From positions 62,001-126,000 of the forward strand of contig JAJEGF010000004.1 of the NCBI GenBank assembly GCA_022820025.1: DNA of 64,000 nucleotides, written 5' to 3'. The position numbers were made by a program, and so were the translations under genes. The notes under the pieces were generated by a model that searched no databases, was not told the origin of the DNA, and saw only the letters and a list, made by a program, of their open reading frames with translations. Shown here piece by piece: positions 2,031 through 54,541 of the stretch; positions within the stretch are counted from its first letter, which is position 1; the number at the start of each line of letters is the position of its first letter. The stretch is from Chloroflexota bacterium (lineage in GTDB: Bacteria > Chloroflexota > UBA11872).

Positions 2031-3779
2031 ATGCGTGTGAAACCCGACGCCGAACGCCTCATGGTCGTGGACCTCGGGCCGTACGTGCGCGCCGGCGTTT
2101 TTGCCCGCGGACCGGGCGGGTACCGAATCCTGGCGGCCGGCGCGGCGCCGTCCACCCTGGATGCCCCGCATTTCGACCTCACGCCGGCCTTTGAGGGCGC
2201 GCTGGCCGATGTCGCCGCCCGCGCGGGCAGCTTCGCCTTTCCGGGTCCGCCGCACGACGGGCCGCTGGTCGACCGCGCACCCGGCATTTCGGCGGTGACC
2301 GGCGACGAGGCCGTCCGCCGGCCCACGGCCTTCCTCCTGGGCAACCTGGTGCAGCGCGATCTCGACGAGTTGACCAACGCGATCGCTCAAGCCGGCTTCG
2401 AGCAGATTGGCGCCGCCACCACCTCGGTCCGCGCCTTTCGAGATCGCGTCGACGGGCCGGCGGCCGTGGAAGTCATCGTGTCGCGCATGCCCGACACCAT
2501 CGTCCTGGCCCTGACCGGCGATGACACGGGCGAGAGCCTGGAATATGCGGTTGACTTGCTGACCGGTGGGCTTGCCGGGCACGAGTCCGGCTATCTCCCG
2601 CGCGTGGTCGTGCTCTATGCCGGTGTGCCCGCGCCGGACGTCGGCGATCGCCTGCGGGCCGCGCTGCCAACCACGGTCTTCCAGGTCTACGGCGGGTCAC
2701 CCACCGAGCCCATGGACATGGGGACGCCGCTGGCCGCCCTGCAGGACTCGGCGCGCGCGGTGCAGCGGGCCGAGTCGTCGGATCGCGTCGTCCCGCCAGC
2801 CCTGAGTCGCGCACCCCAGGTCCCCCGTGAGGAGGCCCTGGGAGCGGCGGCACGCTGGTTGAGCGCGGGCCAGGATCTTGATGTGGCGGTTATCTCCTTT
2901 GACTACGGCGACGTCACCGCCGCGATGCCGCGGGACGAGTCATCCGTGGTGACGCGGCTCAGTTCCGAACGGGCGCACGGTCGCCCCTTCCACCTCGGGC
3001 TGCATACCCCCGTGGACCGCGTCGCGCGTTGGACCGCCGACGAGCCGCTCCCCGAGGCCCTGCAGGTCTTCGTGCTGGAGCGCACGGCGCAACCGACCGC
3101 GCTGCCGGGTTCGTCGTCCGAGCTGCAGCTGGCCCATGCCATCTGGACAGCCGCGGCGCGGGAAGCCCTCGGCGAATCCGGCGGGAGTCGCGGCCGGCCG
3201 CTCCAGGTCGACCTGGCCGTGATAACCGGCGACATCACCCGCACCCTTGCGCGACCCGTGCAAGCGGCGCTCGTCCTGATCAACAGCCTTGAGGCCGCGG
3301 GCGTCACCCAGTTGGCGCTGGACGCCTCCAACGCGCTGGCCATGAGTGGATCCCTGATTCACACCGGGCTGGCCGCGTCCGTCGAGTCCTCGCTGGTGCG
3401 CCTGGGCGCCTGCGCGGCGCTGCGCGGTGATGCCTCGCTCGGCAATGCGGCCGTTGCCGTCGAGGTCCATCCGGCCGGTGCTTCCGTGATCGAGCGCGAA
3501 GTGACCGCGGGCTCCATGGACGTCATCCAGTGGGACGCCGACGTGGAAGCCGACGTCCGCATCTGGCCGGCGCCCGAATTCGACGCGGGCTTGGGCTACG
3601 GGCGCCCGGTGCACCTGCGCGCCCCGATTGTGGCCGGCAGCGTGGGTCTGGTCGTGGACGCGCGCGGCCGGCCGCTCGTGTGGCCGGATGCCCCGGATGC
3701 CCGCCAGGCCTGGGTCGCGCAATGGCACCGCGCCTTGAACGCCTATCCCGCCGGCCGGCCGCCCCGCCATGTCTCCTGA
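2031..3779 (+). CDS. MutL/GlmL-family protein (glutamate mutase-associated ATPase-like)
   Basis: A 582-aa protein of the MutL (GlmL) family, named after the gene between glutamate mutase subunits in clostridia and unrelated to mismatch-repair MutL. The N-terminus (LMVVDLGPYVRAGVF) is the phosphate-1 strand of an actin/Hsp70-type ATPase fold. A second DVAVISFDYGDVT-like segment near residue 290 and LALDASNALAMSG near 430 fit the duplicated fold. No glutamate mutase subunit genes lie nearby; in Chloroflexota this gene is usually found without them, so its substrate is unclear. ATG 2031 was chosen because it precedes the conserved VVDLG strand by 10 codons; ATG 2061 is possible. It overlaps the next gene by 11 bp, implying co-translation. 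Confidence 0.75.
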   Translation: MRVKPDAERLMVVDLGPYVRAGVFARGPGGYRILAAGAAPSTLDAPHFDLTPAFEGALADVAARAGSFAFPGPPHDGPLVDRAPGISAVTGDEAVRRPTAFLLGNLVQRDLDELTNAIAQAGFEQIGAATTSVRAFRDRVDGPAAVEVIVSRMPDTIVLALTGDDTGESLEYAVDLLTGGLAGHESGYLPRVVVLYAGVPAPDVGDRLRAALPTTVFQVYGGSPTEPMDMGTPLAALQDSARAVQRAESSDRVVPPALSRAPQVPREEALGAAARWLSAGQDLDVAVISFDYGDVTAAMPRDESSVVTRLSSERAHGRPFHLGLHTPVDRVARWTADEPLPEALQVFVLERTAQPTALPGSSSELQLAHAIWTAAAREALGESGGSRGRPLQVDLAVITGDITRTLARPVQAALVLINSLEAAGVTQLALDASNALAMSGSLIHTGLAASVESSLVRLGACAALRGDASLGNAAVAVEVHPAGASVIEREVTAGSMDVIQWDADVEADVRIWPAPEFDAGLGYGRPVHLRAPIVAGSVGLVVDARGRPLVWPDAPDARQAWVAQWHRALNAYPAGRPPRHVS

Positions 3780-4863
3780 GTCGGTGAACCACAAGACGCT
3801 TCCGCGCGGCGTGTTGGTGGGACGCCTGCGTCGCCGCCACGCCCTGCCGTTTCCCGGTCGCATCCTCGTGGAGGTGGGCGACACGGTCGCCCCGGGCCAG
3901 ACCTGGTGTCGCGGCCGGATCCGGCGCGGCGCGCTGGTGGTCGACCTTCCCCGCATCCTGCAGGTCCCGCCGGGCGAAGTCCTCGACCTCCTCGTCGTTG
4001 AGCCCGGCGAAATCGTTGAGGCCGACACCCTGCTCGCCGGTACGCCCGGCCGCCTGCGCGGCAACCGCAACTGGCTGGCGCCGGCGCGCGGGATGCTCGC
4101 CGAATTCAATGCTCGAACCGGTGTCGCGGTATTTGTCCGCGAGGAACGCGAAGCCGCCCTCGCCTGTCGGCTGGCCGGCGAGGTTGTGAGCGCCGACCCG
4201 GACGACGGAATCGTCGTAGAGGGCGACGGCGTGGCCGTCGCCGGCGCTCTCGGCGGTGGCGGACGCGCCTTTGGACCGTTTCGGTTTGTCGAGTCCGGCG
4301 AGCGCCCGGACGCCAGGGCCGGCGATCACCAGCCGGGCATTCTCGTCACGCCGGATCCGCTGCGCGCCGAGTGGGTGCGACACGCCCTGGAAACACAGCC
4401 GGCCGGCATTGTGGCCCCGTCGGCCGACGCCGAAATGGTGACGGGGCTCGCACTCGCCCAACCCATCGCCGGTCTTGCGCCGCCCGAGGGCAGCTACGGC
4501 CGTCCCCCGCAGGCCATCGTGCTGACCGGCGGCGTGGGCTTCGCCCGCATGCCGCACGGCCTGCAAGACTTGTTTCGGGCCGCTCAGGGTGAGGTTGGCG
4601 CCGCGATCGGCGCACGGCGGCCCGGACAGTCGGAAATCCTGCTGCCGCCCGCGGCCGCCGAAGGCCTGGCGCGGCGCGCGGCGCGGGGTCTCCCGGTTCG
4701 TCTGACCGTCGGTACCGGCGCGGGCGCGGAGGGAATCATGCTCGGCGAGGCGCCCGACGTGGGCCGCCTGAGCTCGGGTATCGCGACCCAGTTCGTGCGC
4801 GTCCGCCTGGCGGAGGGCGGCGTGGCGATCTGGCCAACGCCCAACCTCGCCACGCTCGCCTGA
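3769..4863 (+). CDS. Conserved hypothetical protein linked to mutL-like gene
   Basis: A 364-aa protein overlapping the end of the MutL-like gene by 11 bp, so probably translationally coupled and functionally linked. Two stretches (residues about 25-50 with FPGRILVEVGDTVAPGQ, and about 70-90 with VEPGEIVEADTLLAGTPG) have the G-D/E-x-V-x-x-G turns of barrel-sandwich/biotinyl-lipoyl-like domains. There is no lysine in a biotin or lipoyl motif, so cofactor attachment is not supported. The middle contains GIVAPSADAEMV and AIVLTGGVGFARMP, Rossmann-like strand-turn patterns. No enzyme family was recognised. The linkage to MutL-like genes is inferred from this arrangement. Confidence 0.6.
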   Translation: MSPESVNHKTLPRGVLVGRLRRRHALPFPGRILVEVGDTVAPGQTWCRGRIRRGALVVDLPRILQVPPGEVLDLLVVEPGEIVEADTLLAGTPGRLRGNRNWLAPARGMLAEFNARTGVAVFVREEREAALACRLAGEVVSADPDDGIVVEGDGVAVAGALGGGGRAFGPFRFVESGERPDARAGDHQPGILVTPDPLRAEWVRHALETQPAGIVAPSADAEMVTGLALAQPIAGLAPPEGSYGRPPQAIVLTGGVGFARMPHGLQDLFRAAQGEVGAAIGARRPGQSEILLPPAAAEGLARRAARGLPVRLTVGTGAGAEGIMLGEAPDVGRLSSGIATQFVRVRLAEGGVAIWPTPNLATLA

Positions 4864-4870
4864 CGCCGAA

Positions 4871-6520
4871 CTACATTCGTTCGGGCGCGCGTATCCCCAG
4901 CAGGCCGAGGCCGTTCGCCAGCACCTGCTGGACGGCTCGGATCAATTCCAATCGCCGGGCCGTTCGGGCGGCGTCGTCGGTCACCACGCGATGCTTGTTG
5001 TAGTAGGAATGGAACACGCGCGCCAGGTCCAGCAGATAGTGCGTCACCCGATGGGGTTCGCGATTCTCACAGGCGTCGGCCACGACTTCCGGAAAGGCCA
5101 GCAGGCGCCGCGCCAGCGCCACGTCGTCGTCCGTCAGGGTCGCCGCCCCGCCAGCCGCGCCGGCCGTTGCCGCGGTGCGCTGGATGCCGGCGCAGCGCGC
5201 ATGCGCCATCTGGATGTAGTAGACGGGATTCTCCGGGTCTTCGCGCTTGGCAAGGTCCAGGTCGAACTCCATCTGGCTGTCGATAGCCTTGGACAGGAAG
5301 AAGTACCGGGTAGCCGCCGGACCCACCTCATCCAGCACCTCGCGGAGCGTCACGAACTTGCCGCTGCGCTTGCCCTGCCGGCCAAGTTCGCCGTCGGTGC
5401 GAATGCCGACCATCTGGGTGACCAGGATCTCCAGGCGCCCCGCGTCCGCGCTCCGATCCAACGCCTCCATGGCCGCGTGCATGCGGGGCACGTGGCCGTG
5501 GTGGTCGGCGCCCCATACGTCGATCACGCGCTCGAAACCGCGCGTCTCGAACTTGTCCCGGTGATAGGCGATGTCCACGGCGAAATACGTGGGATCACCG
5601 CGCGAACGCACCAGCACGTTCTCGCGGTCGTCCGCGCCCGCGCCGCCGATGAACCAGACGGCGCCGTCGCGCTCAGCGACGAACCCCTGCCCGTCCAGGG
5701 CCTGGAGCACCTCGTCCACGGCGCCCCGATCGCGCATGGCCTGCTCGGAGAACCAGACGTCAAATTTGATCCCCAGGTCATCCAGATCCCGTCGAATCTC
5801 CCCCAGGCCAATCTCGACCGCCCGCGCCTCGAACGCCCGCGCGTCGCTCGGAACCCCGTGGCCCAGCCAGCGCGCGCCGTCGTCGCGCGCGATCTGCTCG
5901 GCCCAGTCCGAGACGTAGTCGCCGCGGTAGCCGTCGGCCGGGAATGGCGCCGCTTCCCCAAGCGTCGCGGCGTAATGGTGATAGACGCTCAGCCCCAGGA
6001 TTTCGACCTGGTGCCCCGCGTCGTTGACGTAGTACTCCCGCGTGACGTCGTAGCCACAGGCATCCAAAAGCCGCGCCAGGGCGTCGCCAATCACGCCGCC
6101 GCGACCCGCGCCCGCCGTCAGCGGGCCGGTCGGATTGGCACTGACATACTCAACCTGCACACGCGAGCCGGCGCCTTCCTGCGAACCGCCAAACGCCGCG
6201 CCAGCCTCCAGTATCTCGGCCAGTTGCCCCATCACCCAGGCGTCGTCGATCCAGAAGTTGATAAACCCCGGCCCGGCGGTCTCGACCCGGCTCACGACGG
6301 GCGCTGCCGGCAGATTGGCCACGATAGCCTCGGCGATCCGACGCGGCGGTGCGCCCACAATCCGGGCCAGGCGCAGGGCCTCGGAACTCGAATAGTGCGC
6401 CAGCTCATCGTCGCGCCGCTCCAGGTTGAAGTTGACCGCGGGCGTGGCGCCAACCGCGCCAGCGGCCTGGGCCGCGACGAGTCCTTCGGACAACAATGCG
6501 GAGAGCCGGCTGCGAATCAT
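4871..6520 (-). CDS. argS: Arginyl-tRNA synthetase with altered HIGH motif
   Basis: A 549-aa class I synthetase charging tRNA-Arg. Start is ATG 6520 (MIRSRLSALL); the frame is open upstream to 6655, but those residues do not resemble the family. Order: N-terminal Add-1 domain (1-85), Rossmann catalytic core (about 120-390), and a C-terminal anticodon-binding DALR domain with AARTARRLELIRAVQQVL and GLGLLGIRAPERM at the end. The HIGH region reads SANPTGPLTAGAGR, so both histidines (usual PLHxGH) are Thr135 and Ala138. The KMSKS region is GKRSGKFVTLREVLDEVG, a permitted ArgRS variant. Context and full length still make argS the only reasonable call. A TATACT element lies upstream at 6580-6585. 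Confidence 0.9.
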   Translation of the reverse strand: MIRSRLSALLSEGLVAAQAAGAVGATPAVNFNLERRDDELAHYSSSEALRLARIVGAPPRRIAEAIVANLPAAPVVSRVETAGPGFINFWIDDAWVMGQLAEILEAGAAFGGSQEGAGSRVQVEYVSANPTGPLTAGAGRGGVIGDALARLLDACGYDVTREYYVNDAGHQVEILGLSVYHHYAATLGEAAPFPADGYRGDYVSDWAEQIARDDGARWLGHGVPSDARAFEARAVEIGLGEIRRDLDDLGIKFDVWFSEQAMRDRGAVDEVLQALDGQGFVAERDGAVWFIGGAGADDRENVLVRSRGDPTYFAVDIAYHRDKFETRGFERVIDVWGADHHGHVPRMHAAMEALDRSADAGRLEILVTQMVGIRTDGELGRQGKRSGKFVTLREVLDEVGPAATRYFFLSKAIDSQMEFDLDLAKREDPENPVYYIQMAHARCAGIQRTAATAGAAGGAATLTDDDVALARRLLAFPEVVADACENREPHRVTHYLLDLARVFHSYYNKHRVVTDDAARTARRLELIRAVQQVLANGLGLLGIRAPERM

Positions 6521-6579
6521 GATGGTTGGCCCGCGAACTGCTGGAGCGTGCCGTGCGCGTTCGCGCGGGATGCTTGGCG

Positions 6580-6585
6580 AGTATA
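6580..6585 (-). promoter_or_regulatory. Putative -10 element of argS
   Basis: TATACT on the minus strand, 59 nt upstream of the argS start. It matches the -10 consensus in five of six positions. No convincing -35 box was found, so this is a weak single-element call. Confidence 0.3.
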
Positions 6586-6760
6586 GCGAGAGCCTCGGAG
6601 ACGGCACACCGCCGTCGGACGCGACACCGAGGGCGCTTGGCGGTATGACGAGCACCTCACAATCTTGCGTGAGTTATGTCATCTAGTTAACATCGGTAAG
6701 GCGCGCCTGGACTGGCCTGGGTCGGGCTGAGCAGTGGCCGCCTAAGGAGTCGCGCGGGAG

Positions 6761-7294
6761 TTGCAGTGTCCACGGTGCTGGACGCGTCAGTACGGTGCTG
6801 TCGCCCGCTGTAGTAACTGTAGTAAAGACCTCTTGCCCGGTCGGTCGCCCCGTCTCCGCAGATACGCACTCGTCCTCGCCGTCTTCTGTTTCGCAATCGC
6901 TGGCGGCGTTGCGCTGAGCGCCGAGCGCATTCCTCTTGCCTACCTGATCGTCGGGCTGGGGTTGCTGGCGGCCGGCGGCGCCGCGGTGTATGCGGTGCTA
7001 CCCGTCTCTATGTCCAGCCGCTATCGGCAACGGGCATTGCTACACCTGCGCGGCAACCCCGAACTTGCGCTGCTGGACTTGACCCGGGCGATCGAGTTGG
7101 ACCCGAACGACCGCCGTCTGCTCGTCGACCGCGCCCGCGCCTATCGCCTGCTGGGCCGGCACCGAAAGGCGGCCCTCGACTTGCAGACCTACCTGCGGCA
7201 CACGCGCGGCGAACCGCCCGCGCGCGTGGACCAGGCGCGGATGCTGCTAGAGCGTGTTGAATCCGGCGGCGGTCTCCGTCTCTGGGAGGTCTGA
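6761..7294 (+). CDS. Zinc-ribbon, two-TM, TPR membrane protein
   Basis: A 177-aa protein starting at TTG 6761, supported by a strong ribosome binding site (aaggagt, 6744-6750) 10 nt upstream. Residues 3-20 hold a zinc ribbon (CPRC ... CSNC). Two membrane helices follow: about residues 29-48 (LVLAVFCFAIAGGVAL) and 55-80 (LIVGLGLLAAGG). After residue 90 there is a TPR-type helix pair (ALLDLTRAIELDPND...RLLGRHRKAALDLQTYL). The C-terminal 48 bp overlap the 3' end of the convergent isomerase gene. Zinc ribbon plus TPR suggests a membrane-anchored protein-interaction role; no specific partner is evident. Confidence 0.7.
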   Translation: MQCPRCWTRQYGAVARCSNCSKDLLPGRSPRLRRYALVLAVFCFAIAGGVALSAERIPLAYLIVGLGLLAAGGAAVYAVLPVSMSSRYRQRALLHLRGNPELALLDLTRAIELDPNDRRLLVDRARAYRLLGRHRKAALDLQTYLRHTRGEPPARVDQARMLLERVESGGGLRLWEV

Positions 7295-8101
7295 CGGAGG
7301 CCGACCTGCCGCCCACGCGTCGCCGATTCGCCGCACCAGCGCCGCGGTGGCCGCCGGACCGGCGGCTCCCGTTCCCACTTCAAACGTCCACGCGCCGTCG
7401 AACCCAATCTCGATCAGGGCCCCGGCCACCCGGCGCCAGTTGATGTTCCCCAGCCCCGGCGGCCAGTGCCGGTCCTCCGCCGCGTCGGTGTCTTGCAGGT
7501 GCAGCGCAAGCAGCCGCTCGCCCGCAATCCGCGCCTCGTCCGCCGGGTCCAGGCCGTTGTTGTTGGCGTGGCCGGTGTCCAGGCAGATGCCCACGGTTGA
7601 CGGGTAGTCGTCCACAACGCGGCGCAGGTCCTCCATCCGGCAGAGCGGCCGCGGCTGACCCTTGTGCTGCAGGTTCTCGCAGGCAAGGCGGATGCCCAGC
7701 GCTTCGGCCCTGGCCGTCAGGCTGTCCAGCGAACGCCGAAAGGCGCCGGTGTGCAACGCCGCATCGTCGTTGGAGTCGCGGCCGGTGGGATGCACGATCA
7801 CCGCAAACCCGCCGAGTTCGGCAAACGGTTCAAAGCACGATTCCACCGACGCGACGGCCCGGGCGCGTTCGTCGTCATCAAGCGCCGCCAGGTTGACGCC
7901 AAGGTCGGAATGAATCGTGCGGACCCGAACGCCGTGCTGGTTCAGGATGCGCCGCCGCTCCCCGGCCGTTCGGTCATCCGCCAAGTCTTTGGTGTCGAAG
8001 ATCTCGCACTGCGTGAATCCGGCGGCGGCAACTTCGGCAATCACCTGGTCGAACGGCACGCCGTTGGGCCACAGGGCGGTGGCCAGGCTGAAAACAGGCA
8101 T
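7247..8101 (-). CDS. Sugar phosphate isomerase/epimerase (xylose isomerase-like TIM barrel)
   Basis: A 284-aa AP-endonuclease-2/xylose-isomerase-like TIM barrel. Recognisable strands: AGFTQCEIFD (strand 1), VRTIHSDLGVN, FAVIVHPTG, RLACENLQH with the metal-binding Glu, VGICLDTGHAN with Asp and His, LLALHLQDTD and WTFEVGTG with a final Glu. These are the usual divalent-metal ligands. It begins 3 nt downstream of the NAD+ synthetase stop, so it probably ends that operon. Its 3' end overlaps the convergent TPR gene by 48 bp. Substrate is unknown; such enzymes usually act on keto sugars or inositol derivatives. Confidence 0.75.
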   Translation of the reverse strand: MPVFSLATALWPNGVPFDQVIAEVAAAGFTQCEIFDTKDLADDRTAGERRRILNQHGVRVRTIHSDLGVNLAALDDDERARAVASVESCFEPFAELGGFAVIVHPTGRDSNDDAALHTGAFRRSLDSLTARAEALGIRLACENLQHKGQPRPLCRMEDLRRVVDDYPSTVGICLDTGHANNNGLDPADEARIAGERLLALHLQDTDAAEDRHWPPGLGNINWRRVAGALIEIGFDGAWTFEVGTGAAGPAATAALVRRIGDAWAAGRPPSDLPETETAAGFNTL

Positions 8102-17475: not shown

Positions 17476-17789
17476 GCGACAACCTCGAATCGACGCGAGT
17501 CTCTAGCCATGCCGGGGCCACTCTCAAGGTCTCCTAGTGCCGTTCTGCTCACCGCAGGACTTGACTGGACGTAACAGATCCTTATCAAGAGCGGCGATAG
17601 GCATGCTCAGTGTCAGGCGATCTATCCACAACCCGCCTCGCCCCATCATTCGATCCCCGAGCACTGGGTCGCGCTGCTTCGTCTACGCCGCCACGATAGT
17701 CCGGCGCCTAGACTACAGGGCACCGAATGACTTCGCCGATTCCCGGGCGTCCTGGAGAGTCCGGATCAATCCTCCCGGCTACCCACCAG
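17476..17789. other. Spacer without recognised gene
   Basis: About 310 nt between the small repetitive protein and the R-M remnant. A frame stays open from 17537 into the methyltransferase remnant, but its first 80 codons match nothing. No promoter, terminator or RNA gene was seen. Confidence 0.5.
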
Positions 17790-18037
17790 GCCTTGCCCCG
17801 CATCCCAGCCTCAAGCCCCAGGCCTTCCTGCGCACACTCGTTCGTGCCGTGCTGCCCCGTGGCGAAGGCGTCGTCCTCGATCCGTTCGCCGGCGCCGGAT
17901 CCACCCTCGCCGCCGCCGAGGCCGTGGGCTACCAGAGCATCGGCGTCGAACAGGACGAACGCTATTTCGCGTTGGCCAAAAGAGCGATTCCAAAGCTGAC
18001 CAGCTATATCCCGAACGGAGGTCAGTCGCGGCGGTAG
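17790..18037 (+). pseudogene. C-terminal remnant of the DNA methyltransferase
   Basis: In the frame ending at TAG 18035-18037 the last about 80 codons match the C-terminus of the intact DNA methyltransferase (23481-24638) almost residue for residue: HPSLKPQAFLRTLVRA, VVLDPFAGAGSTLAA, AVGY and AIPKLT. The FAGAGS SAM-binding motif is present, but the catalytic DPPY motif and the HTH domain are missing. The stop codon position and the convergent overlap with the endonuclease fragment are as in the intact pair. Confidence 0.85.
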
Positions 18038-18104
18038 ACCCAACTCTCTCGAAACTTCCGAATCCCATCTTTGTGAAGAGTCGCCGTGCGTGTTCCCAGC
18101 GACG
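18022..18104 (-). pseudogene. C-terminal remnant of the restriction endonuclease
   Basis: On the minus strand the frame reads GTRTATLHKDGIRKFRESW then VYRRD and stop. This matches the last 26 residues of the intact endonuclease (24623-25276), which read GTRTATLHREGIQKFRESW and VYRLD. The overlap with the methyltransferase stump is 16 bp, identical to the intact locus. The homology ends at about 18104, immediately before the DUF2283-like stop codon at 18110-18112. Confidence 0.85.
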
Positions 18105-18109
18105 AACGC

Positions 18110-18262
18110 CTAAGCCGTCTCGCACTCGAGGACCGAAAGGTTGAGGTCCGAGGAACGCTTCGAAAGGTGCAGCAGTTCCACACCAATCACCTCATGCGCC
18201 CCAATGTAGTCCACGATCATCCCCGGCACCGCCGGCAGCGTCTGCCCAATCAGCTCCCGCAT
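18110..18262 (-). pseudogene. Chimeric ORF: methyltransferase N-part fused to DUF2283 C-part
   Basis: A 50-codon open frame from ATG 18262 to TAG 18110. Its first 16 residues (MRELIGQTLPAVPG) match residues about 34-50 of the methyltransferase at 12402-13235, and the rest (from Y-x-G-A-H-E-V-I-G-V-E-L-L-H) matches the C-terminal half of the DUF2283 protein at 16286-16486. The join falls in a stretch where both parents encode P-G-(hydrophobic)3-D. Upstream the methyltransferase homology continues to 18340 (SYYERIVEAGR) but is cut by an in-frame TAG. Whether the short ORF is expressed is unknown. Confidence 0.8.
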
Positions 18263-18345
18263 CCGCGCAAACTCAAGCAGACGCCGCTCCTACCGCCCCG
18301 CCTCCACAATTCTCTCGTAATACGAAAGAATCTTCCGGCCCAACC
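18230..18345 (-). pseudogene. N-terminal remnant of the SAM methyltransferase
   Basis: Minus-strand homology to the start of the methyltransferase at 12402-13235: SYYERIVEAGR matches SYYEGIDEAGR, and LEFARMRELIG is identical. A TAG follows EAGR in frame, and two codons are missing relative to the parent. It runs directly into the chimeric ORF. Confidence 0.75.
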
Positions 18346-18607
18346 GTCTGTTACTCTTCACCATGACACGTCGCCCGTTATAATTCAGTGAACGAACCGA
18401 CCTTCCTAAGGCCAAGTGCCCGACCCGATCCATCGAAATGTTCAACTGTCCGGCAGGAGTTTTCCTCCATGACAAGGGTATACGCAATTTTCACATTTGA
18501 AGCACGACTCTACTCTCACCACTTGGGCGTAGAACCGCTGGCGATATCCCACAACAACTTGAGCGGGCTCACCGGCTCAAAGCCAATCTGCTTAAGGAGA
18601 TGAGCTT
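18346..18607 (+). other. AT-rich leader region of the ATPase operon
   Basis: A perfect TATAAT lies at 18379-18384 but without a clear -35 box. A 44-codon ORF (18469-18603, MTRVYAIFTF...) ends 4 nt before the ATPase start, and its last codons overlap the ATPase ribosome binding site aaggag. It could be a leader peptide or chance. Nothing else was recognised. Confidence 0.35.
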
Positions 18608-20038
18608 ATGATCAAGAAGCTTAGATTATTCAACTTCAAAGCTTTTGAAGACACCGGTAGTCTGGATCTCAGGCCAATCACAGTGCTCGCAGGCCCCAAC
18701 AGTGGAGGAAAGAGCTCTGTACTACAAAGTCTCCTGCTTTTGAAGCAAACGCTGGCAGGACGCCCTGAGATCAATTTGAATCTCGATGGCCAGTACTTAC
18801 AGTTTTCGGATTTTAGCGAGCTAGTATTCGGCAGGCCTTCGCTGTCCAAGTCCGCTATCACTTATCAATTCCTCATCGAGTCTCCAATGCCGCGAGAGTA
18901 TGTGCCACGTTACTTCTCGAATCCACCACCGTTCGACGGCGACGAGGACGCGACTCTCCGGAGCGACATTGAAATGACGTTTCGCTACAGACGACAGGAG
19001 CTCCGCGACTCTGCAATCCTCGATCAGTTCAAGATTGAATCAAGACTAGGCGAATTAAGAGGACCCTTTTTTCGTGCCTCCTACAGAGATGGCCGGTACA
19101 AGGCTAGCATGGCCGGAAAGAACGTAAGACGTCGGTTAGCATCTTTCAAGGGACAGCGGATTGATACGGTGCATGGAAGACACTTTCTTCCGCAATTTTT
19201 GGTGTTGGAGGCCGACGGTGACAGTGACTATCGACAGCATCTGACCTTAGACGCAATATTTCGCAATCCATTGAATAGATTACGAGAAGAACTCGAGGTT
19301 CAGCTTGGATACTTAGGACCACTACGCCAGCGACCTCAACGAGCCTATCTCCATTCGGGAAATCCAACAATTGACATAGGCGAGAGCGGCGAATACGCCG
19401 CACAAGTCCTTTGGCGAGAAAGAAATCGCAAAATCTCCTATTCGACCGGTATCGGTGAAGATCCCCAAGAAACAACCCTACTCGAAGCGGTCAACGATGC
19501 GTTCGCTCGAATTGGAATGCTCCAGCCAGTCACCGTGAAATCCGAGCGTTCGGTTATGTATCAGATCCTCTTTCTCTTGGAGGGATCCAGGACGAAGCAA
19601 ACGACAACAATAGCCGACGTGGGCTTCGGAGTGAGTCAACTACTACCTATCTTGGTGATTGGTTTGCGGCTAGGCAAAGAGTCACTTTTGATGCTAGAGC
19701 AGCCTGAGATTCATTTGCATCCTAGGTTGCAGGCCAACTTAGCCGATTTTCTCCTAACGTTGGCCACGAACGGTCGACGGATCATAATCGAAACTCACAG
19801 CGATCACTTCATCAATAGGCTAAGGCGGCGCATTGCTGAAGACTCAACAAACCAACTTCAAGACTCAGTTAGTATTCTATTTGTCAATCCACCGGTAGAG
19901 GGTCGTGGGGCGAAAGTCGAGCCATTGCAGATAGATAAGTATGGTGTAATCCGGAATTGGCCTCCGGGGTTTTTGCCTGAGGCAGCAGACGAGGCCCAGG
20001 CTATATTTTTGGCCGGGATGAACAAGCGAGGATTATAG
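18608..20038 (+). CDS. ABC-like AAA ATPase with DUF3696 C-terminus
   Basis: A 476-aa ATPase preceded by a strong ribosome binding site (aaggag). Walker A is GPNSGGKSS at residues 30-38, the signature motif lies in DVGFGVSQLLPILV (about 338-351), Walker B is LLMLEQPEIHLHP (about 360), and the H-loop is IIETHSDHF (about 395). Together these define the AAA_15/AAA_21 family related to SMC/OLD ATPases. The tail (VNPPVEGRGAKVEPLQIDKYG, about 425-446) fits DUF3696. Family members usually act with a second, effector protein in phage defence or plasmid interference. The gene is distinctly AT-rich and sits 4 nt before a second AT-rich gene. Confidence 0.8.
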   Translation: MIKKLRLFNFKAFEDTGSLDLRPITVLAGPNSGGKSSVLQSLLLLKQTLAGRPEINLNLDGQYLQFSDFSELVFGRPSLSKSAITYQFLIESPMPREYVPRYFSNPPPFDGDEDATLRSDIEMTFRYRRQELRDSAILDQFKIESRLGELRGPFFRASYRDGRYKASMAGKNVRRRLASFKGQRIDTVHGRHFLPQFLVLEADGDSDYRQHLTLDAIFRNPLNRLREELEVQLGYLGPLRQRPQRAYLHSGNPTIDIGESGEYAAQVLWRERNRKISYSTGIGEDPQETTLLEAVNDAFARIGMLQPVTVKSERSVMYQILFLLEGSRTKQTTTIADVGFGVSQLLPILVIGLRLGKESLLMLEQPEIHLHPRLQANLADFLLTLATNGRRIIIETHSDHFINRLRRRIAEDSTNQLQDSVSILFVNPPVEGRGAKVEPLQIDKYGVIRNWPPGFLPEAADEAQAIFLAGMNKRGL

Positions 20039-20042
20039 TCAA

Positions 20043-20930
20043 GTGTTTCTTACTGCGTTCGATCCGGATCTGCTCATTTACAGCGAGGCACACTGGCGTA
20101 CAAGGCAACATTGTTTCTACAAGCGTGCCGGAGCACTCGCCGAGCACAGGGATGCGAATAGGTATTACGGCCAGTCAATTGCTATTTCGCACGAGCTGGC
20201 GGCGTTGGTTTACCAGTCATTTCCGTGGCACGATTCTTATCGAAGCATCCCTGAGCTGCGAGATTTGCGACAGTTCGTTCTTGAGGATCTAGGTAGAGTC
20301 TGTAAAATCATGCACCGGCCACGAGCGTCCGAAGTGACTTTTCAACCGGAGGGCGTCACTTGCGTTAAGATTTCGGATGACGAAGTCATAGAACTATGGA
20401 AAGATCTGCTAGCTGTCTGCCTCGACCGAGAAGTGGCATTGGGCGTCGATTTTCAGATCGCGACTTGGCCTTCAGCGATTGTTACGAGTGGGTGCGACCA
20501 TCTCCGCCTGTCTATATTCTGCCAGTCAGCTTGTGAGTCTCATCGTATTCCGTTGGTATGGAGCGGTGCGAGTTGGAAGCGACGATTAAGGTTTCGTGAT
20601 TTCTGGCCTGATTTACATAGGTGCGTAGAACTCTATTCCCAAGCCAGCATCGCTGGACTCGGCACTCGTGGATCGAAGACCCCAGTGGCTTTCGATTGCA
20701 CTGATGACTTCTGGAAATCAGTTTCGAAGTTCTGTCAGCCAACTATGCGGCATCGTTTGATCAAGGCAGTATCCAAGAAAGTGCACGGCATACACGACGC
20801 GACTCTAGGTGACGAGAGGATAGGTTCCCTGCGCAGATTTAGAGTAACGAAGTTCTGGAGAGTGCACTATCGCGATCTTGGAGATCGAATTGTGCTCGAC
20901 GAATTTGGCCCGCATGATATGGGTATCTAG
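20043..20930 (+). CDS. Unrecognised 295-aa ATPase partner, RelE-like C-terminus
   Basis: It starts at GTG 20043, 4 nt after the ATPase stop, and is similarly AT-rich, so the two form one transferred operon. The body (N-terminal FDPDLLIYSEAHW, middle VALGVDFQIATWPSA and LRLSIFCQS) matches no family recognised. The last 30 residues, RRFRVTKFWRVHYRDLGD then RIVLDEFGPHDMG, show the alternating strand pattern with R-x-x-R-V-x-Y and final G-x-H-D seen at the C-terminus of RelE/HigB-like ribonuclease toxins. An effector role next to the ATPase is inferred from position and this motif. No catalytic residue set can be named with confidence. Confidence 0.55.
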   Translation: MFLTAFDPDLLIYSEAHWRTRQHCFYKRAGALAEHRDANRYYGQSIAISHELAALVYQSFPWHDSYRSIPELRDLRQFVLEDLGRVCKIMHRPRASEVTFQPEGVTCVKISDDEVIELWKDLLAVCLDREVALGVDFQIATWPSAIVTSGCDHLRLSIFCQSACESHRIPLVWSGASWKRRLRFRDFWPDLHRCVELYSQASIAGLGTRGSKTPVAFDCTDDFWKSVSKFCQPTMRHRLIKAVSKKVHGIHDATLGDERIGSLRRFRVTKFWRVHYRDLGDRIVLDEFGPHDMGI

Positions 20931-21373
20931 CCGATGGACGCGTGCTCATCTATGGGCGTCGAGGGTCGGGGAGTTCGATAACTCCTGGATGTAGTAGCGA
21001 TAAGTTTGTGCACTTGGGCTTGTAGGCGAGTCCGAAAACATGGAGCGAAGCGTAGTGTACTCGTAGACCATATACGAAGTGGTCGTCAAGAGTAATGGTT
21101 AAAGCTGATGTCGCGCGATCGCTCTATTTGGGAAAGTCGTTGGCAGAATCTCGGTTGTTCAGTTTACCATGTCACAACACTCTGCCCCAGGCGTCTGGCT
21201 ATTGAGGCCGATTGACGTGGGTCACGTATACACGACTTGGCCATGGCGTTAACGTGCAAGTAGCCCGTAACACCCGTGCACATAGTTCAACTGACAGCCA
21301 GTCAGATTGGCCCAGCGATGCATTTGGGCGGCATGGGCCGGCACGCTGGTGGCGGTCGCGCGGGAGTTCGGTA
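20931..21373. other. AT-rich spacer, no gene recognised
   Basis: About 440 nt between the partner gene and the Asp-box remnant. No convincing ORF, hairpin or promoter was found. An ORF from 21212 runs in frame into the Asp-box remnant but has no recognisable sequence before 21374. Confidence 0.5.
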
Positions 21374-21575
21374 TTGCCCAACCCGAGCATCACCCCGCTA
21401 GCCCAGACTCTAAAATCGCCGCCCAGGTTTCCGATTCCAGCCTTTTTCGTCATCGACGGCCAGTTCGTCGCCAGCGACGGCGAGATTTAGCACCATGCCG
21501 TCCTCTGCACCACGCACCGCATCTCCGACTTTCGATCGCTCGCTATGGATCTTCGCTGCAAAGGTTCGGGGAAGT
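21374..21575 (+). pseudogene. Internally deleted copy of the Asp-box gene
   Basis: TTG CCC AAC at 21374 begins a match to the first 24 codons of the gene at 14824 (LPNPSITPLAQ against MPNPNVTPLAQ), with a 1-nt deletion before the conserved KIAAQV segment. It then jumps to the equivalent of residue about 80 (VIDGQ against VVDGQ), and then to the last 30 codons (LCTTHRISDFRSLAMDLR against LCTIHRIPNFRTLAMDLR). About 80 percent of the gene is missing and the frame is broken. Confidence 0.85.
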
Positions 21576-21673
21576 GGCAACTTGTGGTTGACCGTCGCTC
21601 GCCATAGGATGGTCTCTCCTGAGCGCCCATTGCCCCGATTGCCATACCGCAAGAGGTCGATCCTTAGAATCAC

Positions 21674-23294: not shown

Positions 23295-23480
23295 CTCTGG
23301 TCTTCGGGCAACGGTTCGATGCCATGCGCGTCAGCAGACCGGAGTTTCACGGCGAGCGACGCTTGCTGCGCCGTGGCCGCCATCCACTGTTCGCGGCATC
23401 ACCTCGCACGTCTGAGGTTCCCACTGTCCGATTGCGGATGACCTTGACCAAAGACGTCCCGACGTCTAAAGTCCAGTCAA

Positions 23481-24638
23481 ATGACCGACGAGCACGCGCG
23501 CCAGGCGCCCGGACGGGTACGGGACGGCATCGTTCAGGTGATGGCGCATACGTCGCAGCCGCTGTCCGTAAAGGAGATCGAGGAGCGCGTATCCCAGGTC
23601 GCGGGTCAGACCCGAGGTTCCTCCATTCGCTCATATCTGCGGCTAAACACCCCGGGCGTGTTCGCCCGCGAGCGACGAGGCGTCTACCGGCTTCAATCAT
23701 CGGCCGAAACCGGCGTCCAGCGCGAGCTTCCGGCACTTAGCGAATGGGAGGCGCCCGCGTCGTTCGGCCAGGCGACACTGCACCACGCCGACTGCTTCGA
23801 CTGGCTGCGCGAGCAGGACGACAACAGCATTCACGCTGTCGTGACGGATCCACCCTATGGCCTGCACGAATACACCAACGAGCAGCAGGCCAAGCTACGC
23901 AAGGGCAAGGGTGGCGTATGGCGGATTCCCCCATCGTTCGACGGGCATCGACGCTCGCCATTGCCGCGGTTTACAACGCTGACGCCCGAGCAGCTCAACG
24001 ACATCCGAACGTTCTTCTTCGTCTGGGCCCGCCTGCTGCTCCCCAAGCTAGTGCCGGGCGCGCAAGTGGTCGTGGCTTCCAATCCCCTGCTGTCGTATCT
24101 CGTTTCAGGGGCGCTAGCCGATGCGGGATTGGAGCGCCGCGGTGAGATTGCCCGACTCACCATGACCATGCGCGGAGGCGACCGGCCAAAGGCCGCGCAC
24201 AAGGAGTACTCGGAAGTTAGCGTGATGCCCCGCTCCATGTGGGAACCCTGGGTGATCTACCGCAAGCCCATCGAGGGACGCGTCCAGGACAACCTGCGAA
24301 CCTGGGGAACGGGCGGCTTCCGCCGACCGAATCCCGACAAACCGTTTGGCGACGTCATCGCCTCCGCCCCGACCCGAAAGGCCGAGCGCGACCTGGCTCC
24401 GCATCCCAGCCTCAAGCCCCAGGCCTTCCTGCGTACGCTCGTGCGAGCGGCGTTACCGCTGGGGGAAGGTGTTGTTCTCGACCCGTTTGCGGGCGCCGGA
24501 TCGACTCTGGCAGCGTCTGAAGCCGTCGGCTACAGAAGCGTAGGAATCGAAAAGGACCTGCTGTATTTCGAGATGGCCAAAGAGGCCATACCCAAACTCA
24601 CGGACTATTCGCCCACCAACGGTCAGTCGAGCCGGTAG
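23481..24638 (+). CDS. DNA methyltransferase of an R-M system, with N-terminal HTH
   Basis: A 385-aa adenine/cytosine-N4-type DNA methyltransferase. Residues about 12-72 form a winged helix (IVQVMAHTSQPLSVKEIEE ... VFARERRGVYRL) like the HARE-HTH domains often fused to R-M proteins. The catalytic motif DPPYGLHEY lies at about 120-128 and the SAM-binding FAGAGSTLAASEAVGY at about 340-355, an N-terminal DPPY order as in beta-class enzymes. It overlaps the convergent endonuclease by 16 bp. A C-terminal stump of a second copy lies at 17790-18037. TAAAGT ends 8 nt before the ATG, possibly the -10. Confidence 0.88.
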   Translation: MTDEHARQAPGRVRDGIVQVMAHTSQPLSVKEIEERVSQVAGQTRGSSIRSYLRLNTPGVFARERRGVYRLQSSAETGVQRELPALSEWEAPASFGQATLHHADCFDWLREQDDNSIHAVVTDPPYGLHEYTNEQQAKLRKGKGGVWRIPPSFDGHRRSPLPRFTTLTPEQLNDIRTFFFVWARLLLPKLVPGAQVVVASNPLLSYLVSGALADAGLERRGEIARLTMTMRGGDRPKAAHKEYSEVSVMPRSMWEPWVIYRKPIEGRVQDNLRTWGTGGFRRPNPDKPFGDVIASAPTRKAERDLAPHPSLKPQAFLRTLVRAALPLGEGVVLDPFAGAGSTLAASEAVGYRSVGIEKDLLYFEMAKEAIPKLTDYSPTNGQSSR

Positions 24639-25276
24639 ACCCAGCTTTCTCGAAACTTCTGGATTCCTTCTCTGTGAAGAGTTGCGGTGCGTGTTCCCAG
24701 CTCTGAACGAGGGTTCTTCCGAAAGTCATCAAGTGTGACGTGGCCGAGATAGATGCTGGTGAAGGTCATGGGCGATCGATTCATGGCCGGTTCTGTCTCG
24801 GTATCCACTCGATACACGAACACGCACATCCACTGCTCGCGCGCGCCATGCATGTCGACCGCCCCACCACGATTGCGCGTGGACTTGATCTCAACGCCCT
24901 CACTACCAGACTTGATCGCATTATTGGGATACACACCTTGTACCAGCAGATCGGGATGCCCGTTGTGATATCTGTTCTCGGTCAGAACGCGCGAATGCTT
25001 GGCGAGGCTAGACGTCAACATGTCGGACAGAACACCGGACATGATGGCCGGGCGCAGCATGTCATCCAGCCGCTGAAAGCCTCGTGACGTGAGGTGCGAA
25101 TTGACATCGAAAAAGAAGTCGTAAATGTCTTGCAGCGCAATCTGAAAGTCCTGCAGGCGAAGCTCAAATGGCAAATCGACGTTGGCGTTGAAGCGCGAAG
25201 CATCCACAACGTTGCGTGCTATTGGCATTGAGGTATCCGGCAGCTCTCGCGGGCGTGCAGAGAGCGCTGCGCTCAC
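24623..25276 (-). CDS. Type II restriction endonuclease, PD-(D/E)xK type
   Basis: A 217-aa protein, convergent with and overlapping the methyltransferase, so it is the cognate nuclease. The PD-(D/E)xK core is visible: HPDLLVQG (Pro108-Asp109) followed by GVEIKSTR (Glu129-x-Lys131). The rest is alpha/beta with no further family match, so the recognition site cannot be stated. Translation may start at Met17 (25228), where conservation looks better. The last 26 residues are preserved in the remnant at 18022-18104. Confidence 0.82.
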   Translation of the reverse strand: MSAALSARPRELPDTSMPIARNVVDASRFNANVDLPFELRLQDFQIALQDIYDFFFDVNSHLTSRGFQRLDDMLRPAIMSGVLSDMLTSSLAKHSRVLTENRYHNGHPDLLVQGVYPNNAIKSGSEGVEIKSTRNRGGAVDMHGAREQWMCVFVYRVDTETEPAMNRSPMTFTSIYLGHVTLDDFRKNPRSELGTRTATLHREGIQKFRESWVYRLD

Positions 25277-25380
25277 ATCGGAGTTCTATCGGGTGGTCAG
25301 TCTAGGCCAGGGAAACGCCTCTCGTTCCTGCTGAGTGTCCACTAGCATCATGAAGACGCCGCGCCGCATGGAGCCCAAGC

Positions 25381-26367
25381 ATGAAACGCATGGCCAAGCC
25401 CGAAGGCCGAGGCAACGTGGTCCTGGAAGACGCCCCCATCCCCGAGCCCGGCTACGGCCAGGTCCGCGTCAAAGCCGTGCGCAGCCTCATCAGCCGCGGC
25501 TCCGAAATCGGCCGGCGCTATGTCCTCGAAGAAGCCGTCGATCCCCAGATCATGGGCTACTCCATGGCCGGGGTTGTGGATGCCCTGGGCGAGGGCGTGC
25601 AGCACCTCGCCGTCGGCGACCGCGTCGGCGCCGTCGCGCCGCACGCCCAGTACGTCGTCGGCGCCGCTATCCCCGAGCGCCAGGCCAAGCTGCCCGAGAT
25701 TCTTCCGCTCTCACCCGACGTCACCTGGGACCAGGCCCCCTACTGGATGCTCAGCGCCTACGCCGTGCGCTGGACCGACATCGCCCCCTTCCAACCCGGC
25801 AACGTCATCGTCGTCCTCGGCCAGGGCCTCGTCGGCAGCCTCATCCTCCAGGTCATGCGTGCCATCGACGCCGGACGCCTCATCGCCGTTGACGCCGCCC
25901 CGCTCCGCTGCGAGCTTGCCGCCAAACTCGGCGCCGACCACGTCGTCAACGCCGCCGACGAAGACCCCGTCGCCGCCGTCAGGCGACTCTCCGAAGGCGT
26001 CGGCGCGGACCTGGTCGTCTACGCCGTCGGTGGACCCGCTGGCCCCAGGGCCTTCCGGCAGGGCATGGAAATGCTCGCCGAGGGCGGCGCCCTCCACCTC
26101 ATCGGCAAGTACGAGCAGCAATACCTGCCCCTCAGTTCCGAAATCATCCAGAGCCGCCGCATCGTCGGCGGCTACTTCGGCGGCCAGTGGCACATCGGCT
26201 CGGCTCGCCGCGCCCTCGCCCTCATCGAATCCGGCGCCATCGACCCCGACCGCATGACCACCCACCGCTTCCCCTACACCCGAGCCCCCGAAGCCTTCCA
26301 CCTCCTCCACGACCACCCCAACCAAACCCTCGGCGTCCTCCTCCACTGGGACATCGACGACAGCTAA
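25381..26367 (+). CDS. Medium-chain dehydrogenase/reductase (zinc-independent type)
   Basis: A 328-aa MDR protein. An N-terminal GroES-like domain (PEPGYGQVRVKAV, then VGDRVGAVAPHA) is followed by the nucleotide-binding fold with VLGQGLVGSLILQV at about 141-154 and ELAAKLGADHVVNAADED. The usual G-H-E-x-x-G of zinc alcohol dehydrogenases reads GYSMAGVV, so the catalytic zinc ligand is absent. It is probably an NAD(P)-dependent reductase for sugar- or quinone-like substrates. A frameshifted C-terminal fragment of this gene lies at 29120-29245. Confidence 0.82.
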   Translation: MKRMAKPEGRGNVVLEDAPIPEPGYGQVRVKAVRSLISRGSEIGRRYVLEEAVDPQIMGYSMAGVVDALGEGVQHLAVGDRVGAVAPHAQYVVGAAIPERQAKLPEILPLSPDVTWDQAPYWMLSAYAVRWTDIAPFQPGNVIVVLGQGLVGSLILQVMRAIDAGRLIAVDAAPLRCELAAKLGADHVVNAADEDPVAAVRRLSEGVGADLVVYAVGGPAGPRAFRQGMEMLAEGGALHLIGKYEQQYLPLSSEIIQSRRIVGGYFGGQWHIGSARRALALIESGAIDPDRMTTHRFPYTRAPEAFHLLHDHPNQTLGVLLHWDIDDS

Positions 26368-53845: not shown

Positions 53846-54127
53846 GTGTCGACTGAGGTGCAGAGCGAGATAGGCGAATGGACGATGTCGGCGACGGAGC
53901 TCAGGGCGAAGTGTTTGGGGTTGATTGATGAGGTGGCGGAGACGGGAAGGGAGATTGTGATTACGAAGCGCGGGAAGCCAGTGGCTCGGCTGGTGCCCTA
54001 TCGGCGGAAACCAAAGAGTCTGTTTGGCATGGGCCGGGGGCGGATTGAGATTCTGGGCGACATCGTGTCGCCGATGCCGGCGGAGTGGTACACGGATCCG
54101 GACGACAGCGATCCGCTGCTTCCGTGA
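53846..54127 (+). CDS. Phd/YefM-type antitoxin 2 (toxin lost)
   Basis: A 93-aa protein from GTG 53846. Core L-R-A-K-C-L-G-L-I-D-E-V and E-I-V-I-T-K-R-G-K-P-V closely match antitoxin 3 and, less so, antitoxin 1. Immediately after its stop lies a toxin stub (54124-54165), so the partner has been lost. An extra N-terminal S-T-E/D-x-Q-x-x-x-G-E-W-T-M-S-A-T segment is shared with antitoxin 3. Confidence 0.85.
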   Translation: MSTEVQSEIGEWTMSATELRAKCLGLIDEVAETGREIVITKRGKPVARLVPYRRKPKSLFGMGRGRIEILGDIVSPMPAEWYTDPDDSDPLLP

Positions 54128-54253
54128 CTCTGCTCAACAGGCACGTTCTGGTGTTGCTGCGGTTCGGGTGGGCTTTGGCTTTAGGCGGTCGTGGATGGGG
54201 CTTGACGGTGGGCGTGGCGATGCGTTTCGCGTGGTCGGCAGGCCCTGGAGGGG
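54124..54253 (+). pseudogene. Remnant of a PIN toxin N-terminus and linker
   Basis: GTG ACT CTG CTC ... reads TLLNRHVLVLLRFG, matching ILLDTQVLLWIRRG of the intact toxin; the active-site Asp is Asn. The homology ends after about 14 codons. The following linker resembles that at 53730-53845 (a tggcttt/tgggttt-aggcggt-gtggatg block), indicating a tandem duplication of the unit. Confidence 0.65.
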
Positions 54254-54541
54254 TTGGACGTGTCGACTGATGGGCAGACGGTGACGGGTGAATGGACGAT
54301 GTCGGCGACGGAGTTCAGGGCGAAGTGTTTGGGGTTGATTGACGAGGTGGCGGAGACGGGAAGGGAGATTGTGATTACGAAGCGGGGGAAACCGGTGGCG
54401 CGGTTGGTGCCGTTTCGGCGGAGGCGGGGTGCGCCGTTTGGTCTGTATCGGGAGCAGATTCGGATTCACGGAGATATTGGGGCACCGATTGATGTGGAGT
54501 GGGACGCGGAGGTGAACCCGGACCGGGTCTTAGATTCCTGA
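54254..54541 (+). CDS. Phd/YefM-type antitoxin 3 (toxin lost)
   Basis: A 95-aa protein nearly identical to antitoxin 2 through its core (F-R-A-K-C-L-G-L-I-D-E-V-A-E-T-G-R-E-I-V-I-T), then diverging at the C-terminus (Y-R-E-Q-I-R-I-H-G-D-I-G-A-P). After it, a 24-codon frame starting ATG 54541 (MPIDSNCLVSRW) faintly recalls a PIN start, but this is weak. Start codon assumed at 54254. Confidence 0.83.
   Translation: MDVSTDGQTVTGEWTMSATEFRAKCLGLIDEVAETGREIVITKRGKPVARLVPFRRRRGAPFGLYREQIRIHGDIGAPIDVEWDAEVNPDRVLDS

What the first reader, a model, noticed from the sequence alone, without database searches (positions are those of the whole stretch)
18608..20930. Two-gene AT-rich ATPase/partner unit, candidate new defence or toxin system
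Seen: a DUF3696-type ABC-like ATPase with intact Walker A, signature, Walker B and H-loop, followed 4 nt later by a 295-aa protein matching no recognised family and ending in a RelE-like strand pattern. Both are AT-rich against a GC-rich background and sit among R-M, HEPN and gene debris. Known: ATPase plus effector pairs (Septu, PARIS, OLD-type systems) act in phage defence. Inference: the second gene is the effector and the ATPase its trigger.
Basis: partly seen in the sequence, partly recalled or inferred. Interest (0 to 1): 0.78.

Follow-up and report, generated by a model that had tools for sequence, protein, structure and literature searches.

The report
ATPase-gated RelE toxin, candidate phage defence
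Two neighbouring bacterial genes appear to form a small immune module in which an ATP-binding sensor protein holds and releases an RNA-cutting toxin; relatives of the sensor sit beside other toxins, which suggests a plug-in system for stopping infected cells.

Summary
Bases 18608-20038 encode a DUF3696-type ABC ATPase; 4 nt later, 20043-20930 encode a 295-aa protein matching no family model. Its last ~83 residues fold as a RelE-superfamily toxin (AlphaFold2; VIA Z 10.6 to YafQ) with a YoeB-like set of conserved residues. Relatives of this protein turned up in 8 other records (Coatesbacteria, two cyanobacteria, Heliobacterium, Saprospiraceae, Pseudoalteromonas, a methanogen, a viral contig), each directly downstream of a DUF3696 ATPase; searches begun from the partner found no unlinked copy. 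In the three congeners examined, the 3.56-kb stretch holding the pair is absent from its site at the end of a methyltransferase gene. ATPases with RelE-type partners do not form one clade; they interleave with ATPases whose partners end in Ntox17-like or colicin-like domains, and some partners share a weakly conserved N-terminus. Best reading: a two-gene abortive-infection module in which the ATPase gates an exchangeable toxin. The ATPase family has Gln where ABC ATPases usually have the catalytic Glu, so gating may use ATP binding more than hydrolysis. Gating and defence are inferred. It resembles Menshen, HEC-03 and PARIS but fits none. A 2025 paper on Menshen polymorphism could not be read.

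The parts
18608..20038 (+). DUF3696-type ABC ATPase (476 aa), proposed sensor and gate
18692..18718 (+). Walker A (GPNSGGKSS, aa 29-37)
   Evidence: sequence; conserved columns
19613..19639 (+). ABC signature region (ADVGFGVSQ, aa 336-344)
19685..19708 (+). Walker B (LLMLEQPE, aa 360-367), with Gln365 in the usual place of the catalytic Glu
19796..19798 (+). H-loop histidine (His397)
   Evidence: invariant
20043..20930 (+). partner protein (295 aa), proposed toxin effector
20046..20462 (+). N-terminal part (about aa 2-140), weakly similar to N-termini of some other DUF3696 partners; proposed docking part; fold not determined
20679..20927 (+). RelE-superfamily domain (aa 213-295) with conserved Glu258, Arg265, Arg267, Arg273, Tyr276, His291, Asp292
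18066..21627 (.). 3.56-kb stretch holding the pair, without counterpart in the three congeners examined
17537..18037 (+). C-terminal fragment of a type II DNA methyltransferase at the left edge of the inserted stretch
23481..24638 (+). type II DNA methyltransferase (context, not part of the pair)

Best explanation
A two-gene abortive-infection (phage-defence) module. The DUF3696 ABC ATPase binds the N-terminal part of its partner and keeps the C-terminal RelE-type ribonuclease inactive. When an infection cue reaches the ATPase, a nucleotide-driven change (ATP binding or slow hydrolysis, since the usual catalytic Glu is Gln) exposes or releases the RelE domain, which cuts mRNA on the ribosome and stops translation before phage can multiply. 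The ATPase thus takes the place of the antitoxin that normally restrains RelE. Shown here by sequence: conserved ATPase motifs, predicted RelE fold, conserved residues, adjacency across phyla, absence of the pair in congeners at a restriction-modification site, and different toxin types across the ATPase tree. Inferred: binding, gating, cue, RNA cleavage, and protection against phage.
For: RelE fold of aa 213-295: Foldseek 1.7e-5; VIA Z 10.6, rmsd 2.2 over 82 residues to YafQ; the Nostoc relative, predicted separately, has the same top hit at 4.8e-3. Glu258, Arg265, Arg267, Arg273, Tyr276, Asp292 invariant in 8 of 8 rows, His291 aligned in 7 of 8; profile match to natural YoeB toxins P 8.5e-4, column-reversed control 0.13. 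Adjacency in 8 of 8 other records. Searches begun from the partner: only the own copy in 400 phylum genomes; one copy in each of 8 carriers and none in 6 other records; one plasmid record of 72,556, the linked one; no phage record. P1 matches defence ATPases NsnB 1e-67, HEC-03B 9e-57, AriA 4e-29. Pair absent at the site in 3 of 3 congeners examined. RelE-linked ATPases rejected as one clade: p-AU 1e-69, or 1e-6 without L063. Precedent for a sensor-controlled RelE: Cami1 (Z 7.5, itself a middling score).
Against: No record or experiment shows phage protection. The N-terminal ~200 residues are poorly predicted, so docking is unproven. The shared N-terminus is weak and uneven: Ntox17-like against colicin-like partners gave P 0.32 and YHAF against colicin-like 0.069; of 6 Ntox17-type N-termini only one, and of 4 colicin-type two, score clearly with the core RelE-type model, and the reciprocal Ntox17 and colicin models do not see the window's N-terminus beyond shuffles. 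A fold does not prove RNA cleavage. The catalytic Glu of the ATPase is Gln. The 8 relatives are few and came from searches with the ATPase; the large genome collection was never scanned with the partner, and tblastn with the window's partner missed L054, so such searches are insensitive. Flanks of relatives hold few clear defence genes (one KwaB-like, one sub-threshold HEPN).
Confidence: 0.57

Rival explanations
1. An addiction or stress toxin-antitoxin module: the ATPase is an unusual antitoxin for a RelE toxin, and the pair persists by stabilising the DNA around it, not by sensing phage.
For: RelE toxins are classically found in toxin-antitoxin pairs (recalled); no antitoxin-like gene was recognised by eye among the small ORFs beside the pair; the pair is patchy; one relative is on a megaplasmid; the ATPase lacks the usual catalytic Glu, so it may act as a holder only.
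Against: The ATPase family is shared with defence systems in PADLOC, and related ATPases carry other toxin types.
Confidence: 0.22
2. A reduced or split Menshen system in which the DUF262 protein NsnA is supplied from elsewhere in the genome.
For: P1's best PADLOC match is Menshen NsnB; three DUF262 proteins exist elsewhere in this genome.
Against: No DUF262 hit on the window's contig, none among 10 flanking ORFs of five relatives or the annotated neighbours of L054; the three lie in open frames of 608-778 aa, longer than the DUF262 genes beside L058 and L059 (384 and 388 aa); the partner has no NsnC hit in PADLOC and no profile match to three NsnC proteins.
Confidence: 0.1
3. The RelE-fold domain is ParE-like or catalytically dead and acts on gyrase or only as a binding part.
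For: ParE-type structures also match (VIA Z 7.2-8.9).
Against: YafQ, Helicobacter toxins and YoeB rank above them (Z 9.1-10.6), though the lowest of these are tied with the best ParE; conserved Glu and Arg line up with YoeB (catalytic role recalled).
Confidence: 0.1

Closest known systems
Menshen (NsnA, NsnB ATPase, NsnC)
   Same: ATPase of the same family (NsnB 1e-67); ~300-aa partner gene directly downstream of the ATPase, as in L058 and L059
   Different: no DUF262 gene beside the pair; partner not matched by any NsnC model
HEC-03 (PADLOC candidate: HEC-03A, here PIN-like, plus DUF3696 ATPase)
   Same: two-gene layout and related ATPase (9e-57)
   Different: partner is a ~160-aa PIN-type protein there, a 295-aa RelE-ended protein here; sampled PIN-linked ATPases fall on one side of a branch
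PDC-M55 (PADLOC candidate)
   Same: related ATPase (1e-51)
   Different: partner of the example seen (L060) is PDC-M55B (8.7e-42), TOPRIM-like by eye; not RelE
PARIS (AriA ATPase plus AriB)
   Same: ABC ATPase plus separate toxic effector; AriA model matches P1 at 4e-29; AriA senses phage Ocr and activates AriB (PMC12839542, passage seen)
   Different: effector is a TOPRIM nuclease that cuts tRNA there
Cami1 (CRISPR-associated RelE effector)
   Same: a RelE ribonuclease under control of a sensor instead of an antitoxin; matched by fold (Z 7.5)
   Different: controlled by a cyclic-oligoadenylate-binding domain in the same protein (titles; details recalled)
YafQ/YoeB/RelE type II toxins
   Same: fold and conserved residues
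   Different: stand-alone ~90-aa toxins with a small antitoxin (recalled); here behind a ~210-aa N-terminal part and paired with an ATPase

Membership tests
RelE/ParE superfamily (fold) | beta-alpha-alpha-beta-beta-beta fold of ~85 aa | tested here: met
   predicted model; repeated on the Nostoc relative
RelE/YoeB ribonucleases | catalytic Glu/Arg/His set | tested here: met
   Glu258 and Arg273 invariant in 8 of 8, His291 aligned in 7 of 8; the hhalign alignment reaches Glu and Arg but stops before His; which residues are catalytic in YoeB is recalled
RelE/YoeB ribonucleases | ribosome-dependent mRNA cleavage | not testable with these tools
   needs an experiment
Menshen | DUF262 (NsnA) gene in the operon | tested here: not met
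   no PF03235 match on contig C74
Menshen | NsnB-type ATPase | tested here: met
   PADLOC NsnB 1e-67 over aa 1-462
Menshen | NsnC partner | tested here: inconclusive
   no PADLOC NsnC hit; profile comparison with only 3 NsnC rows gave P 0.34
HEC-03 | PIN-type HEC-03A partner | tested here: not met
   no HEC-03A hit at E up to 1; P2-family vs PIN profile P 0.26; the N-terminal fold is unresolved
PARIS | AriB (TOPRIM) partner | tested here: not met
   no AriB hit in PADLOC for the partner; C-terminus is RelE-type
Septu | HNH-type PtuB partner | tested here: inconclusive
   no Pfam or PADLOC match for the partner, but its N-terminal fold is unresolved

The most novel reading that the evidence does not exclude
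DUF3696 ABC ATPases are a general immune chassis: in one branch the partner protein has a related N-terminal docking module and an exchangeable C-terminal toxin (RelE, Ntox17-like, colicin-like and others), so that toxins are swapped while the sensor-gate stays. The gate is a naturally 'EQ' ABC ATPase (Gln in place of the catalytic Glu) that works as an ATP-locked clamp, and in the window's version it replaces the antitoxin of a RelE ribonuclease.
Probability: 0.45. Interest if true: 0.77.

Novelty: new variant of a known kind. Interest (0 to 1): 0.6.

Why it matters
If right, it gives a small, testable system for two open questions: how DUF3696/NsnB-type ATPases sense infection, and how a RelE toxin can be held in check without a RelB-type antitoxin. 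It also gives relatives from very different hosts to choose from for experiments, and a way to read other unnamed partners of these ATPases as toxins.

Tried and rejected
Viral-contig hit L002 to the 295-aa protein was set aside as chance: its match (3594-3707, plus strand) runs across the end of a DnaB-like ORF (2257-3660) and no ORF there looks like a relative. Scans with two-row or core alignments of the P2 family in viral contigs, and with L137, found nothing; L063 found only itself. A PDB sequence search with the family profile gave no hit at E up to 10. The N-terminal fold could not be determined in either model; no claim is made that it is new. Weaker Foldseek rows include TrmO and the toxin Txp40. 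That the partner is a Menshen NsnC got no support, but with three rows this is inconclusive. Tree cautions: L063 was flagged for composition in the quick tree, the window's ATPase in both, and long branches meet in both; the clade test was repeated without L063 only. Rows left out of trees: loci with unassigned partners, two thirds of the PIN loci (26 kept), ATPases under 250 aa; all but 8 PIN rows and all NsnC, F6, L056, L060 and L149 rows. 'Colicin-like' for L071/L073/L074/L128 partners is by eye only, Pfam gave nothing for the three scanned; Ntox17 matches lie just under the curated cut-off (21.4-22.4 against 25 bits). Literature searches; word-start searches for RelE also catch 'relevant' and 'release', so say little; the single hit (PMC12926258) was seen as a listing only. 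Li et al. 2025 (NAR gkaf357) on Menshen domain polymorphism and Krishnan et al. 2020 on ABC ATPases are not held; their titles were seen in reference lists. They may already describe part of the toxin exchange.

Full report
What is there. The window carries an ATPase gene (18608-20038) and, 4 nt after its stop, a 295-codon gene (20043-20930). Both are 50-51% GC in a 64.6% GC window. The ATPase has the Pfam AAA_15/AAA_21 core and a C-terminal DUF3696 segment just above the curated cut-off. Walker A, signature, Walker B and H-loop residues are conserved against relatives. Against PADLOC its best matches are Menshen NsnB (1e-67), HEC-03B (9e-57) and PDC-M55A (1e-51), ahead of AriA, GajA and OLD. 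The second protein has no significant match in Pfam, PADLOC, PHROGs or NCBIfam.

A twist in the ATPase. Its Walker B reads EQPE. In canonical ABC ATPases the second residue is the catalytic Glu (recalled). Of 124 relatives, a motif was found in 120: Gln at that place in 112 (111 EQPE, 1 DQPE), other residues in 8 (3 EHPE, 2 ENPE, 1 each ESPE, DMPE, DPPE), Glu in none. One of the two patterns that fetched the genome and viral loci contains EQPE, so the share is biased upward, but the other does not. The gate may therefore work by ATP binding or slow turnover.

The second protein ends in a RelE-type toxin domain. With six relatives as alignment, AlphaFold2 gives residues 211-290 block pLDDT of 77-91 and the strand-helix-helix-strands order of RelE; most of the first 200 residues are below 60. 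Foldseek finds the Vibrio YafQ chain 9lew_B (1.7e-5), then Helicobacter toxins, YafQ, YoeB, RelE and others; VIA gives Z 10.6, rmsd 2.2 over 82 residues. A separate prediction of the Nostoc relative returns the same top hit more weakly (4.8e-3). One of 8 family members touches Pfam YafQ at 0.038. A profile of the family matches natural YoeB toxins from related genomes collinearly (P 8.5e-4; reversed control 0.13). Glu258, Arg265, Arg267, Arg273, Tyr276 and Asp292 are invariant in all 8 rows; His291 aligns in 7 of 8. In the YoeB alignment Glu258 and Arg273 fall on the Glu of KPEPL and the Arg of HRIVY; that these, with the C-terminal His, are catalytic in YoeB is recalled.

The pair is conserved. 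A P2-family protein lies directly downstream in 8 of 124: L054 Pseudoalteromonas, L063 viral contig, L077 Coatesbacteria, L079 cyanobacterium (truncated), L083 Heliobacterium, L099 Saprospiraceae (ATPase cut by the contig end), L134 Methanohalophilus, L137 Nostoc. The start lies -3 to 16 positions from the ATPase's last base. These loci came from the ATPase, so they do not by themselves test linkage. Searches begun from the partner do, within their reach: only the own copy in 400 genomes of the phylum, 101 relatives and 41 genomes of the class, which overlap; one plasmid record of 72,556, the linked L054, with the Nostoc protein, none with two others, of which one search shows the limit, since it missed L054; no phage record for three queries; and in 14 records searched whole one copy in each of the 8 known carriers and none in the other 6. 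The large genome collection could not be scanned with the partner. The family looks rare.

The other partners. Counting downstream neighbours only, the 80 genome loci have PIN-type 62, P2-family 6, YHAF type 4, Ntox17-like 2, colicin-like 1, F6 1, two single types (L144, L149) and two unassigned (L080, L138) (class names are mine, with a narrower window and upstream neighbours, gave PIN 57 and YHAF 5). In 16 viral loci: Ntox17-like 5, F6 4, colicin-like 3, P2-family 1, unassigned 3. In 20 own-phylum loci: PIN 14, NsnC 1, unassigned 5. In 8 plasmid loci: NsnC 2, P2-family 1, unassigned 5, of which L053, L055 and L057 are PIN with long ORF starts. The closest ATPase of the phylum sample, L033 at 36%, has an unassigned partner that looks Ntox17-like (Pfam 0.063).

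A related front end, different back ends. Profiles of the P2 family and other classes match collinearly at the N-terminus: Ntox17-like P 2.1e-4, YHAF 1.8e-4, colicin-like 2.4e-3, and Ntox17-like 1.1e-6 with another alignment; Ntox17-like against YHAF 1.2e-3. Against this, Ntox17-like against colicin-like gave 0.32 and YHAF against colicin-like 0.069; NsnC, F6 and PIN gave 0.34, 0.071 and 0.26 with the P2 family. The 28 column-reversed controls range from 0.039 upward. A model of five core RelE-type N-termini scores L067 (Ntox17 type) 20.5 bits, L071 and L073 (colicin type) 19.4 and 14.0, the window's own 12.3; none of 1000 shuffles of each reached its score. The other Ntox17 N-termini score 2.2-8.3 and the other two colicin ones 0.8-1.1; L078 at 8.3 was reached by 6 of 1000 shuffles, and the reciprocal Ntox17 and colicin models do not score the window's N-terminus above its shuffles. 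So a shared front end is likely for part of these classes and unproven for the rest.

Exchange on the ATPase tree. In a 34-row tree the RelE-linked ATPases are not one clade (p-AU 1e-69; without L063 1e-6). The window's ATPase and L077 fall beside the Ntox17-linked ATPases (support 89/82, not starred), five core rows form a group (98/95), L063 lies among the colicin-linked ones (100/100) and L134 beside them (95/89). A 62-row quick tree agrees on the window and L063. So the toxin domain, or the whole partner, has been exchanged, or RelE was recruited more than once. L063's N-terminus is core-RelE-like (84.6 bits) and not colicin-like (1.5 bits), which points to exchange of the whole partner there.

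Setting. Of 12 congeners, none has the partner; the site was examined in three, G006, G010 and G004. There the stretch 18066-21627 has no counterpart: the end of the methyltransferase gene and the diacylglycerol-kinase gene are 233, 234 or 1,186 bp apart instead of about 3,560. tblastn finds no ATPase there and only chance-level matches of the partner (E 0.34-0.69). In G004 the methyltransferase-restriction block sits at this place; in the window a copy of that block lies further right (23439-25490) and only a methyltransferase C-terminal fragment remains at the left edge. The pair is a compact insertion at a restriction-modification site. The phylum is most likely Chloroflexota: contig G190:C147, 'same phylum', has the length (8,887) and match position of JACQUR010000241.1, a Chloroflexi MAG (L094).

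How it probably works. ABC ATPase plus toxic partner is the layout of PARIS, where AriA detects the phage Ocr protein and activates AriB to cut tRNA (PMC12839542, passages seen). A RelE toxin under sensor control has a precedent in Cami1 (found by fold). By analogy the ATPase holds the partner and lets the RelE domain act when infection is sensed. None of these steps was shown. Because the Walker B count weakens the argument from intact catalysis, I lowered the main reading from 0.60 to 0.57 and raised the toxin-antitoxin rival from 0.20 to 0.22; the uneven N-terminal controls lowered the novel case from 0.50 to 0.45, and its new clamp element raised interest-if-true slightly.

Membership and novelty. 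Menshen needs DUF262 in the operon: none on this contig. HEC-03 needs a PIN partner: not matched. The NsnC link is open. On Menshen I saw passages of PMC10952713; Li et al. 2025 could not be read. I therefore call this a new variant of a known kind; the RelE-type partner of the window has no model in the four libraries searched.

Noticed in passing
L053:4964-5563, L055:4393-5085, L057:4286-4987: In three of the eight plasmid loci examined, the PIN plus DUF3696-ATPase pair is followed by a gene annotated as RNA ligase family protein: a possible cut-and-repair unit.
   Followed up: no
window 17537-18065 and 23439-25490: The methyltransferase is present twice, once as a C-terminal fragment beside the inserted pair; congeners have it left of the kinase gene, so it appears to have moved or been duplicated.
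   Followed up: partly
   Followed up: partly
L080:2587-4296 and 5468-7168: Two similar ATPase genes in tandem, each followed by a related partner gene (4445-5380 and 7178-7932, the second cut by the contig end) in Desulfobacterales HSG2.
   Followed up: no
L063:587-1531 (-): A Kiwa KwaB-like gene lies about 2.5 kb from the RelE-type pair on a viral contig.
   Followed up: no
L066:3446-3964, L068:3438-3956: Two F6-type ATPase-partner pairs carry a PIN-like gene (by eye) directly upstream of the ATPase.
   Followed up: no
window 54001-57000: A second GC-poor patch (52-56%) that was not examined.
   Followed up: no
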